Assembly (NCBI GenBank): GCA_012735355.1
Contig: JAAYHP010000068.1
Location: 1-7,200, forward strand
DNA: 7,200 bases
Origin: Lysinibacillus sp.
GTDB lineage: Bacteria; Bacillota; Bacilli; Bacillales_A; Planococcaceae
Direction of reading: 5' to 3'
Both the position numbers and the translations under genes were made by a program. Positions 5,941 through 7,200 of this stretch are shown piece by piece. The notes beneath the pieces are model-generated. The model saw nothing but the letters and a program-made list of their open reading frames with translations. It searched no databases and was not told the origin of the DNA. The stretch's first letter is position 1. Each line of letters begins with the position of its first letter.

Positions 5941-6420
5941 TTACTTATGATACGGTTCGCCTTTCATAATTCGAAAGCTGCGATAGATTTGTTCTAGCAA
6001 TACGAGTCGCATTAATTGATGAGGGAGGGTCATGCGACCGAAGCTCAATTTTTCATCCGCTCGATTCAGTACGTCTTTATGTAATCCAAGGGATCCACCA
6101 ATGACAAAAGCGATTTTGCTCGTTCCATAAGTCATTAATTTTTCCAACCCTTCAGCTAGTTCTTCCGACGATTTCATCTTCCCATCAATAGCAAGGGCAA
6201 TTACATACATGCCATCAGGAATTTTCGATAAAATTCTTTCTCCTTCCTTCTTCTTCACAATTTCCATTTCCGCCTCACTTAGTTGCTCTGGCGCTTTTTC
6301 ATCCGCCACTTCAATTAGCTCAATTTTCGCATAGCCCCCAAGGCGCTTTACGTATTCATCGATCCCCATTTTTAAATACTTTTCCTTTAACTTTCCTACA
6401 GAAACAATTGAGATATTCAC
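5941..6420 (-). CDS. rlmH: 23S rRNA (pseudouridine-1915-N3) methyltransferase RlmH
   Basis: RlmH (SPOUT superfamily, formerly YbeA/YydA) methylates N3 of pseudouridine 1915 (E. coli numbering) in helix 69 of 23S rRNA, acting on assembled 70S ribosomes with S-adenosylmethionine. From the chosen GTG (6418-6420) the protein has 159 residues, the family's usual length, and begins [20 protein letters not shown]. The trefoil-knot SAM-binding segment FVIGGSLGL (105-113), the PHQLMRL motif (133-139) and the invariant C-terminal GEPYHK (154-159) are all present. The frame stays open to an ATG at 6444, but those eight extra residues (MFCKGGSC) translate the ribosome binding site, since AAGGTGG (6428-6434) lies 7 nt before the GTG. 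It is the last gene of the htrC-yyzF-rlmH block. Its upstream region is filled with DnaA boxes, so control by DnaA is plausible. I found no convincing promoter hexamers. Confidence 0.96.
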
Positions 6421-6456
6421 ACATGATCCACCTTTACAAAACATTCATCATTCATA

Positions 6457-6616
6457 TTATCCACAAAAACGTTTTTTTCGCTGTAGTGATTAAACGGTTG
6501 TCATCTATAGCTTTCTAATTAATCAATAAATCAAATATTTTAGATAATCACACGTTACCCACATTTACATTTTATTTACAAACACGTTGTCCACAAAAAT
6601 TATGCACATATCCACA
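6457..6616. promoter_or_regulatory. DnaA-box cluster A, upstream of rlmH
   Basis: Boxes are compared with TTATCCACA. There is one perfect match at 6457-6465. One-mismatch sites are TTACCCACA (6555-6563), TTGTCCACA (6587-6595), TTATGCACA (6600-6608, which still fits TTATNCACA) and ATATCCACA (6608-6616). All have the same orientation. The segment lies between yyzF and the rlmH start, 37 nt from the rlmH GTG at its near end. DnaA bound here could regulate rlmH or titrate DnaA. In B. subtilis the yydA (rlmH) upstream region is, as I recall, one of the known non-oriC DnaA-binding clusters. Confidence 0.82.
6550..6595. repeat. Direct repeat pair with DnaA boxes, 32-bp period (cluster A)
   Basis: ACACGTTACCCACA (6550-6563) and ACACGTTGTCCACA (6582-6595) match at 12 of 14 positions. 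Their starts are 32 bp apart, about three helical turns. Identity extends upstream of the 9-bp DnaA box into the ACACG flank, so the repeat unit is longer than the box alone. Confidence 0.7.
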
Positions 6617-6640
6617 AGCTAAACTATATTTTGTGTTAAG

Positions 6641-6805
6641 TTATTTTCTTGATACAATATATTCAGCATCCTTTTCACAGTAATCGCATTTTGTGGATAA
6701 CTTTTCTTCTTCACTTAGTTTATCCAAAATGGGAAAGTCTTTCGTTTCCGCAATATACATATCTAATGCATGATTTACGTGCATCTCGCAGCAATAATAT
6801 TTCAA
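6641..6805 (-). CDS. yyzF: Small CxxH/CxxC protein, YyzF-like
   Basis: From the chosen TTG start (6803-6805) this is a 54-residue protein beginning (M)KYYCCEMHVNHALDMYI. It contains a C-E-M-H motif (residues 6-9) and a C-D-Y-C motif (residues 40-43), together a likely four-ligand zinc site. This matches the small CxxH/CxxC family found beside rlmH in Bacillus (YyzF in B. subtilis, BA_5709 in B. anthracis); its function is unknown. AAGGAG (6815-6820) precedes the TTG by 9 nt. The frame also opens from a GTG at 6848-6850, but that start has no proper ribosome binding site and would add 15 residues that family members lack. A perfect DnaA box (6692-6700) lies inside the gene and encodes Leu-Ser-Thr. 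A terminator separates it from htrC upstream; rlmH lies 220 nt downstream on the same strand. Confidence 0.82.
   Translation of the reverse strand: MKYYCCEMHVNHALDMYIAETKDFPILDKLSEEEKLSTKCDYCEKDAEYIVSRK
6692..6700 (-). promoter_or_regulatory. Perfect DnaA box inside yyzF
   Basis: TGTGGATAA on the plus strand is TTATCCACA read on the minus strand. It lies between box clusters A and B and is one of only two boxes here pointing that way. A further weak site, TTATCCAAA, is at 6720-6728. Confidence 0.7.
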
Positions 6806-6818
6806 TTTAAAAATCTCC

Positions 6819-6872
6819 TTTTCCCTTATTTTTTCCACAATGTTATTCACATTTTCCTTATTTTATCCACAA
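6819..6872. repeat. Direct repeat pair with DnaA boxes, 32-bp period (cluster B)
   Basis: A 22-nt unit at 6819-6840 and a 21-nt unit at 6852-6872 align with one substitution and one single-base gap. Both read TTTTCC(C)TTATTTT and end in a DnaA box plus A: TTTTCCACA at 6831-6839 and the perfect TTATCCACA at 6863-6871. The boxes start 32 bp apart, the same period as in cluster A. A third box, TTATTCACA (6843-6851), sits between them. Confidence 0.75.
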
Positions 6873-6969
6873 TTCATTTTAACAAACTAAAAAAGAGTAG
6901 GAAAGAAAAGGCTTTTCTTTCACCACTCTTTTGTGAAAAACTCTCTGTGGATTACTTAATTTATCCACA
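6831..6969. promoter_or_regulatory. DnaA-box cluster B, between yyzF and htrC
   Basis: Perfect boxes lie at 6863-6871 and 6961-6969. One-mismatch boxes are TTTTCCACA (6831-6839), TTATTCACA (6843-6851) and TGTGGATTA (6946-6954, opposite orientation). The last perfect box begins 2 nt from the htrC stop codon. The cluster overlaps the region from which yyzF would be transcribed, so DnaA could affect yyzF-rlmH expression. A terminator (6889-6932) sits in its middle. Confidence 0.82.
6889..6932 (-). terminator. Terminator of htrC
   Basis: Two stacked stems, AAAAGAGT/ACTCTTTT (6891-6898 with 6925-6932) and GAAAGAAAA/TTTTCTTTC (6901-6909 with 6913-6921), enclose a 3-nt loop with a small interior bulge. 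On the minus strand the hairpin ends in a six-T run (complement of 6889-6894), in the right place about 40 nt after the htrC stop codon. Confidence 0.82.
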
Positions 6970-6970
6970 A

Positions 6971-7200
6971 TTATAATTGTGTACTTTCCGATAATTTTAA
7001 TTGTATCTCAACGATTTTTCCAGAGCGATATACTTTCATATTCAGTATATCTCCTATTTCCGTTTTGTTATATAAATGTTGTCGTAAATCAATGGAGTTT
7101 TCAATTTTTTCCCCATTCATTTCTACAATGACATCATATTGTTCTACGCCTGCTCGATCTGCAGGAGAACCCGGCACGACTTCTGTTACAACTACTCCCG
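6971..7200 (-). CDS. htrC: HtrA-family serine protease, C-terminal PDZ domain only (5' end outside window)
   Basis: Only the last 75 codons are present; the gene enters from the right edge and stops at 6971-6973. The visible residues read V-V-V-T-E-V-VPGSPADRAGVEQYDVIVEMNG, then a helix with DLRQHLYNKTEIGD and closing strands LNMKVYRSGKIVEIQLKL. This is a PDZ domain with the PGSPA..AG binding-groove signature of trypsin-like HtrA/DegP proteases, which degrade or refold damaged proteins at the outer face of the membrane. The protease domain with its His-Asp-Ser triad lies outside the window. The neighbours yyzF and rlmH identify it as the HtrC (YyxA) paralogue, which in B. subtilis follows the walRKHIJ genes, rather than HtrA or HtrB. 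Apparent start codons within the visible part (such as GTG at 7175-7177) are internal. Confidence 0.88.
   Translation of the reverse strand, partial: GVVVTEVVPGSPADRAGVEQYDVIVEMNGEKIENSIDLRQHLYNKTEIGDILNMKVYRSGKIVEIQLKLSESTQL

What the first reader, a model, noticed from the sequence alone, without database searches (positions are those of the whole stretch)
6457..6969. Dense non-oriC DnaA-box cluster spanning the rlmH-yyzF-htrC junctions
Four perfect TTATCCACA 9-mers (6457, 6692 minus, 6863, 6961) and at least eight one-mismatch sites (6555, 6587, 6600, 6608, 6720, 6831, 6843, 6946) fall within 513 bp. A given 9-mer is expected on either strand roughly once per 130 kb of random sequence, so this is not chance. 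No dnaA, dnaN or rpmH is present, so it is not a standard oriC. From memory, B. subtilis has DnaA-binding clusters outside oriC, one of them at yydA (rlmH), proposed to titrate DnaA or regulate genes. The cluster here would be a conserved example, apparently extending over both sides of yyzF and into its coding sequence.
Basis: partly seen in the sequence, partly recalled or inferred. Interest (0 to 1): 0.72.

Follow-up and report, generated by a model that had tools for sequence, protein, structure and literature searches.

The report
Ancient DnaA sink beside rlmH
A 513-base stretch beside the gene rlmH carries twelve exact or near copies of the docking site for DnaA, the protein that starts DNA replication; clusters at this same place recur in nearly all close Bacillus relatives examined, one site even inside a protein-coding gene, and the stretch likely ties up DnaA to hold back new rounds of replication.

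Summary
In detail: 4 perfect and 8 one-mismatch TTATCCACA sites lie in 6457-6969, none elsewhere in the window; 0 of 2000 local shuffles reach this. The cluster matches in gene position a known Bacillus subtilis element, the DnaA-binding region "upstream of yydA, spanning yyzF" (PMC4447404), so it is a new member of a known kind.

New here are its depth and anatomy. At least two TTATNCACA boxes lie within 700 bp upstream of rlmH in 59/60 same-order, 78/80 named and 40/90 class-wide loci (168 of 221 distinct); a reversed control motif does so in 0/230. Eight of the twelve sites lie at stations kept in relatives, four do not. One box is read as in-frame Leu-Ser-Thr in yyzF, with unusually fixed codons; in-gene boxes occur in 112/148 yyzF genes with a cluster and 0/32 without. 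Three other box clusters of this genome sit at other known B. subtilis cluster loci (tsaD, mnmE, ywlC).

The most likely role, inferred, is an oriC-proximal DnaA titration site that also represses yyzF-rlmH. No DnaA binding was measured here.

The parts
6457..6969 (.). DnaA-box cluster (4 perfect, 8 one-mismatch TTATCCACA sites)
6961..6969 (+). conserved box next to the htrA-type gene's stop codon
   Evidence: TTATNCACA at this place in 45 of 60 aligned loci
6946..6954 (-). one-mismatch site TAATCCACA, not conserved
   Evidence: 0 of 60 exact; not kept in the second copy C227
6863..6871 (+). conserved box upstream of yyzF
   Evidence: 53 of 60
6843..6851 (+). conserved box TTATTCACA (fits TTATNCACA), 20 bp from 6863
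   Evidence: 48 of 60
6831..6839 (+). one-mismatch site TTTTCCACA, poorly conserved
   Evidence: 1 of 60 exact, 8 of 60 with <=1 mismatch
6720..6728 (+). one-mismatch site inside yyzF, not conserved
   Evidence: 0 of 60 exact, 10 of 60 with <=1 mismatch
6692..6700 (-). conserved box inside yyzF, read in frame as TTA TCC ACA (Leu-Ser-Thr)
   Evidence: 51 of 60; codon fixation; in-CDS boxes
6608..6616 (+). conserved variant site ATATCCACA, shares one base with 6600
   Evidence: 6 of 60 exact, 52 of 60 with <=1 mismatch
6600..6608 (+). conserved box TTATGCACA, 13 bp from 6587
   Evidence: 43 of 60
6587..6595 (+). conserved box station (here TTGTCCACA)
   Evidence: 35 of 60 exact, 49 of 60 with <=1 mismatch
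6555..6563 (+). variant site TTACCCACA at a weakly box-like conserved place
   Evidence: 0 of 60 exact, 27 of 60 with <=1 mismatch
6457..6465 (+). perfect box in a segment of roughly 131 bp that most relatives lack
   Evidence: aligned sequence absent in 58 of 60; offset read
5941..6420 (-). rlmH (yydA), likely GTG start at 6420
   Evidence: NF000985 and PF02590; start inferred from where the family match begins
6641..6805 (-). yyzF (CxxH/CxxC protein), likely TTG start at 6805 behind AAAGGAGAT
   Evidence: TIGR04129 and PF14116; start inferred
6971..7198 (-). 3' end of an HtrA-type serine protease gene (PDZ domain)
6891..6932 (-). hairpin, likely the terminator of the htrA-type gene, between boxes 6863 and 6946
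   Evidence: folding energy -19.7 kcal/mol, z -4.42; the simple terminator scan did not list it

Best explanation
This is a non-origin DnaA-box cluster at the same genes as the yydA/yyzF cluster of Bacillus subtilis, and it likely works as a docking platform that ties up DnaA after initiation and would also repress the yyzF-rlmH operon. Shown by sequence: the boxes, their syntenic position, their conservation, the recurrent head-to-tail 13-bp and 21-bp spacings in relatives (13 and 20 bp here), and the box inside yyzF. Inferred: DnaA assembles cooperatively on the array; because rlmH lies some 30-75 kb from dnaA in the relatives measured, the site is copied soon after initiation, so the doubled boxes would lower free DnaA and delay the next start. 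Boxes upstream of yyzF and rlmH would block transcription, as published for this operon in B. subtilis.
For: Clustering beyond chance. Published B. subtilis region at the same genes, 7 sites, ATP-DnaA Kd 0.16 uM, with DnaA appearing to repress yyzF-yydD (PMC4447404, passages; PMC8203912, passages); removal of six clusters outside oriC gives early initiation (PMC5295017, passages). Conservation: >=2 TTATNCACA upstream of rlmH in 59 of 60 same-order, 78 of 80 named and 40 of 90 class loci, control motif 0 of 230; 8.3 boxes/kb in the 500 bp before rlmH against at most 0.39 in each other 500-bp bin. Conserved islands include seven on boxes. Codon-level constraint on the in-gene box. Tandem spacings 21 bp in 13 and 13 bp in 10 of 27 named genera or species groups. 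The genome's other clusters sit at other known B. subtilis loci. Boxes also lie between converging gene ends, where no promoter is expected (tsaD/ABC-F), and at rlmH where my search found no yyzF (six of six f9 loci), which favours more than plain promoter control.
Against: No binding, timing or expression data for this organism. The titration idea is debated: one review says clusters with a significant role in B. [quoted passage not shown] The cluster is absent in whole families as sampled, including 16 of 16 f21 loci, 14 of which have a yyzF match. L085 (same family f1) has no box, L175 one. Six of 13 conserved islands are not on boxes, though they are short. A simple scan found no sigma-70-type promoter on the operon strand.
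Confidence: 0.75

Rival explanations
1. The cluster is chiefly a transcription switch: DnaA bound upstream of and inside yyzF represses yyzF-rlmH, tying a ribosomal RNA methyltransferase to replication status; titration is a by-product.
For: DnaA appears to repress yyzF-yydD in B. subtilis (passages); conserved boxes lie just upstream of yyzF and rlmH; three of the other clusters also flank tRNA-modification genes.
Against: Boxes extend into the coding sequence and next to the htrA-type stop codon; the tsaD cluster lies between converging gene ends; rlmH keeps its cluster where no yyzF was found (f9).
Confidence: 0.3
2. A datA- or DARS-like site that changes the nucleotide state of DnaA rather than merely binding it.
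For: Recurrent head-to-tail spacings of 13 and 21 bp suggest an ordered complex.
Against: B. subtilis lacks homologues of IHF and Hda according to a review (PMC13220808, passage); the in vitro Kd at yydA is 0.16 uM for ATP- and 0.33 uM for ADP-DnaA, with a small ADP preference at one concentration.
Confidence: 0.1
3. A second or decayed replication origin.
For: Many boxes in AT-rich DNA (29% G+C in 6421-6970).
Against: No dnaA or dnaN found in the window; no DnaA-trio run in 6380-7000 while the own dnaA contig and that of G250 carry TAGTAATAG; of 20 loci of up to 20 kb around rlmH, 19 show no dnaA.
Confidence: 0.02
4. Chance in AT-rich DNA, or a by-product of yyzF protein constraint.
For: One-mismatch sites are common genome-wide.
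Against: Shuffle and control-motif tests; conserved islands; synonymous codons fixed at the box far more than at other Leu, Ser and Thr codons; in-gene boxes of two main kinds, Leu-Ser-Thr and, on the other strand, Val-Asp-Lys/Asn.
Confidence: 0.01

Closest known systems
B. subtilis yydA/yyzF DnaA-binding region (DnaA-box cluster outside oriC)
   Same: Same genes (rlmH/yydA, yyzF), a box array spanning yyzF, TTATNCACA sites
   Different: Here 12 sites with <=1 mismatch against 7 sites listed there; a segment of about 131 bp with box 6457 is extra compared with most same-order relatives; no binding data here
Other B. subtilis clusters: gcp/ydiF, trmE, ywlC
   Same: The same genome carries clusters at tsaD (gcp), mnmE (trmE) and ywlC
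   Different: Their spread over families differs from that of the rlmH cluster
E. coli datA
   Same: Box-bearing chromosomal site outside oriC that limits initiation (passage)
   Different: datA needs IHF and promotes DnaA-ATP hydrolysis (passage); its genes and sequence were not compared here
Bacillus-type oriC with DnaA-trios
   Same: Same box consensus
   Different: No dnaA or dnaN beside it, no DnaA-trio run

Membership tests
B. subtilis-type DnaA-box cluster outside oriC (yydA/yyzF) | several TTATNCACA boxes within a few hundred bp, outside oriC | tested here: met
   6 exact TTATNCACA in 700 bp; no dnaA/dnaN found in the window
B. subtilis-type DnaA-box cluster outside oriC (yydA/yyzF) | located upstream of rlmH/yydA and spanning yyzF | tested here: met
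B. subtilis-type DnaA-box cluster outside oriC (yydA/yyzF) | near oriC | tested here: inconclusive
   own genome too fragmented; rlmH about 35 kb from dnaA in same-genus G250, about 32 kb in G247 as inferred from its box pattern
B. subtilis-type DnaA-box cluster outside oriC (yydA/yyzF) | DnaA binds it in vitro or in vivo | not testable with these tools
   seen for B. subtilis only
B. subtilis-type DnaA-box cluster outside oriC (yydA/yyzF) | affects initiation timing or yyzF-rlmH expression | not testable with these tools
   published for B. subtilis
oriC / DnaA-trio unwinding system | DnaA-trio run beside boxes | tested here: not met
   none in 6380-7000; present in the own dnaA contig and in G250
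oriC / DnaA-trio unwinding system | beside dnaA/dnaN | tested here: not met
   dnaA and dnaN are on contig C161
E. coli datA | IHF-dependent DnaA-ATP hydrolysis | not testable with these tools
   cannot be judged from sequence; an IHF site was not searched for

The most novel reading that the evidence does not exclude
The rlmH cluster is an ancient DnaA titration element of the Bacillus-Listeria-Staphylococcus side of the Bacilli, strong enough to write part of a protein: DnaA boxes in two orientations dictate the linker of YyzF, and clusters of this network are fixed at RNA-modification genes (rlmH, tsaD, tsaC-like ywlC, mnmE), coupling replication starts to translation fidelity; in Staphylococcus the rlmH (orfX) site may be its last remnant.
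Probability: 0.3. Interest if true: 0.72.

Novelty: new member of a known kind. Interest (0 to 1): 0.46.

Why it matters
What the B. subtilis clusters outside oriC are for is debated: removing six of them makes initiation early, yet a review doubts their importance. Deep, position-specific conservation with codon-level constraint inside a gene says that this site is under selection in many genera, which argues for a real role. It also gives a catalogue of natural variants (present, absent, shifted, missing in whole families as sampled) with which the titration model can be tested, and points to a candidate site upstream of rlmH/orfX in Staphylococcus-like genomes that my paper searches did not turn up.

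Tried and rejected
Chance, protein constraint alone, second origin: rejected. Spo0A box TGTCGAA: none in 6380-7000. Sigma-70-type promoter scan of 6380-7000: four + strand hits, no more than in shuffles (4 against 3.9), none on the operon strand. My first table of boxes around tsaD, mnmE and ywlC picked a neighbouring longer reading frame in some loci; it was replaced and its gene table is not used. L085 (no box) was left out of the alignment, which holds the other 59 same-order loci plus the window. Two named loci were not in the within-locus maximum test because they are short (L134, L184). Nine pairs of loci are the same sequence in two sets, so the sets overlap; distinct loci number 221. 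In the own genome, contig C276 also has two perfect boxes, about 640 bp apart; its genes were not identified, and clusters made only of near matches were not surveyed (one search list was cut). Papers of Okumura 2012 and Ishikawa 2007 are not held; whether they report conservation outside B. subtilis I could not check. For Staphylococcus, the searches gave no paper; that listed 10 of 30, and two S. aureus papers from it, searched for set terms only, showed no mention of rlmH or orfX.

Full report
Observation. Shuffles of the window never reach 12 (0 of 200); shuffles of the segment 6421-6970 itself give on average 0.009 perfect and 0.30 near matches, against 4 and 12 observed (0 of 2000). The genome is a fragmented assembly (641 contigs); it holds 46 perfect sites against 25 for the reversed word and 816 against 701 with one mismatch, so single near matches mean little by themselves.

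Genes. On the minus strand the order is: an HtrA-type protease gene (PDZ end, stop near 6971), yyzF (CxxH/CxxC family, likely TTG start at 6805), rlmH (likely GTG start at 6420) (both starts are inferred). The boxes fall in the htrA-yyzF gap, in yyzF and in the yyzF-rlmH gap. A stable hairpin at 6891-6932 (z -4.42), likely the htrA terminator, lies between boxes 6863 and 6946; the simple terminator scan did not list it.

Known counterpart. In B. subtilis, region 8 of the table of DnaA-binding regions in vitro is described in a figure legend as "upstream of yydA, spanning yyzF", with seven sites and a Kd of 0.16 uM for ATP-DnaA; the same paper says DnaA appears to repress yyzF-yydD (PMC4447404, passages). 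A review lists yyzF-yydABCD as directly regulated (PMC8203912, passages). Reviews report that deletion of six clusters outside oriC gives early initiation, re-introduction of a single one partly relieving it, and one of them doubts a significant role (PMC5295017, passages; PMC13220808, passages). yydA is rlmH: a PDB entry named yydA matches an RlmH protein.

Conservation. I collected 230 rlmH loci: 60 from the same order (30 best-scoring plus 30 chosen over genera), 80 named genomes (the best 80 of 564 confirmed, so close relatives by RlmH), and 90 from the class in 48 families (30 best-scoring, 60 chosen to cover families). Nine pairs are the same sequence in two sets. In the 700 bp upstream of rlmH, at least two TTATNCACA occur in 59 of 60, 78 of 80 and 40 of 90 (168 of 221 distinct); the reversed motif reaches two in 0 of 230 and one in 6. 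The misses are L085 (no box), L134 (only 53 bp of upstream sequence) and L175 (one box). Of the 48 class families, 22 have at least one positive locus, 21 without f25, whose rlmH is near dnaA. Negative are, among others, all 16 f21 loci (14 with a yyzF match), f35 and f7. In the 80 named loci the density is 8.3 boxes/kb in the 500 bp before rlmH and at most 0.39/kb in each other 500-bp bin over 12 kb; the densest 600-bp window is at rlmH alone in 76 of 78 loci tested, tied in one, elsewhere in one.

Anatomy. In an alignment of the window with 59 same-order loci (60 rows, the window counted in), exact TTATNCACA stands at 6961 in 45 of 60, 6863 in 53, 6843 in 48, 6692 in 51, 6600 in 43, 6587 in 35; 6608 is kept as a variant (52 of 60 with at most one mismatch) and 6555 weakly (27 of 60). 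Sites 6720, 6831, 6946 and 6457 are exact in 0, 1, 0 and 1 of 60. Of 13 smoothed conserved islands, seven lie on boxes (2 to 11 columns long) and six do not (1 to 5 columns). Mean column conservation in and outside boxes is 0.76/0.60 in the htrA-yyzF gap, 0.79/0.72 in yyzF and 0.72/0.37 in the yyzF-rlmH gap. Same-strand box pairs are spaced 21 bp in 13 and 13 bp in 10 of 27 named genera or species groups (43 of the 80 named loci were used); each other spacing up to 60 bp occurs in at most two. I read this as an ordered, cooperative array (inference).

The in-gene box. The box at 6692 is read in yyzF as TTA TCC ACA, Leu-Ser-Thr. Over 180 yyzF genes (some from duplicated loci), at these codons TTA makes up 112 of 123 Leu, TCC 98 of 119 Ser and ACA 120 of 120 Thr, while TTA is 31-41% in the other three Leu columns, and ACA is 45% and 71% in two other Thr columns. 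The other columns share the same ancestry and serve as the control; no tree-based test was made. Boxes inside yyzF occur in 112 of 148 genes whose locus has at least two boxes and in 0 of 32 others; the control motif in 0 of 180. The 148 are defined by boxes that include the in-gene one, so the contrast is not fully independent. The 117 boxes come in two main forms: Leu-Ser-Thr (96, plus one Leu-Phe-Thr) and, on the other strand, Val-Asp-Lys/Asn (19), with one further case. So the DNA site, not the protein, is the likely target of selection.

Network. In this genome, perfect-box groups lie downstream of tsaD (contig C9), upstream of mnmE (C120), at the start of ywlC (C256) and at dnaA (C161), the known B. 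subtilis loci gcp, trmE, ywlC and oriC; C227 is a second copy of the htrA end of this cluster, and C276 has two boxes 640 bp apart that I did not place. In complete same-genus genomes G250 and G247 (56 and 69 perfect sites; reversed word 17 and 22) the spots with at least three perfect boxes in 600 bp are: in G250 oriC, rlmH, the tsaD/ABC-F gap and ywlC; in G247 a spot taken as oriC from its box pattern, rlmH, ywlC and a tandem array. In G247 two IS-type transposase genes lie between tsaD and the boxes beside the ABC-F gene. Over 30 genomes from 27 families, at least two boxes occur at rlmH in 18 (f25 included), upstream of ywlC in 18, downstream of tsaD in 17 and upstream of mnmE in 14; the reversed motif never reaches two at any of the three added genes (my count). 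The patterns differ: the three f21 genomes and the one of f35 have 2-4 boxes upstream of ywlC and 1-2 upstream of mnmE but none at rlmH; the single genomes of f9, f4, f15, f30 and f46 have boxes at rlmH only among the four. f9 is called Staphylococcus-like because the RlmH of one f9 locus, L114, matches S. aureus PDB entries best.

Position. Where the contig starts at dnaA, rlmH lies about 31-43 kb away in eight genomes that have the cluster and about 75 kb in one (coordinates; circular contigs assumed); in G250 about 35 kb, in G247 about 32 kb by inference.

Mechanism. Shown: a conserved, non-origin box array, oriC-proximal in the relatives measured. Inferred: DnaA fills it cooperatively, is thereby titrated just after initiation, and represses yyzF-rlmH. 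Not an origin: no DnaA-trio run here, while both dnaA loci checked for one have it.

Novelty. The element is known from B. subtilis. In the searches (listings, then passages of six papers) I saw no report of its spread, of the in-gene codon constraint, or of a Staphylococcus counterpart; the two most relevant papers are not held, so this is no proof of absence.

Noticed in passing
L400:1836-2169 (G247, same genus): Intergenic tandem array of 7.9 copies of a 42-bp unit with seven perfect DnaA boxes, between a sensor kinase gene and an undecaprenyl-diphosphatase gene; possibly a species-specific DnaA sink.
   Followed up: partly
window 6829-7200 and contig C227 (L019:1-370): The assembly holds a second copy of the htrA-end/yyzF-upstream region, about 82% identical, with boxes 6843, 6863 and 6961 kept and 6946 changed; the bin likely mixes two related populations.
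   Followed up: yes
C9, C120, C256 (L001, L010, L021): The four non-oriC clusters identified in this genome flank genes for tRNA or rRNA modification (rlmH, tsaD, mnmE, ywlC); a shared reason is unknown.
   Followed up: partly
window 6421-6554: About 131 bp more between the box array and rlmH than in most relatives, holding perfect box 6457; named Ureibacillus and some Lysinibacillus loci (L128-L133) have a similar or longer gap.
   Followed up: partly
L110, L127, L155, L172, L177, L190, L196 (f36 and named Anoxybacillus/Parageobacillus; L127/L177 and L110/L190 are the same sequences): The in-yyzF box sits at the same distance from rlmH (-153) as in many relatives but in the opposite orientation and another reading frame.
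   Followed up: partly
L378 (G282, f25): rlmH lies about 2.5 kb from dnaA, so its boxes may belong to oriC.
   Followed up: yes
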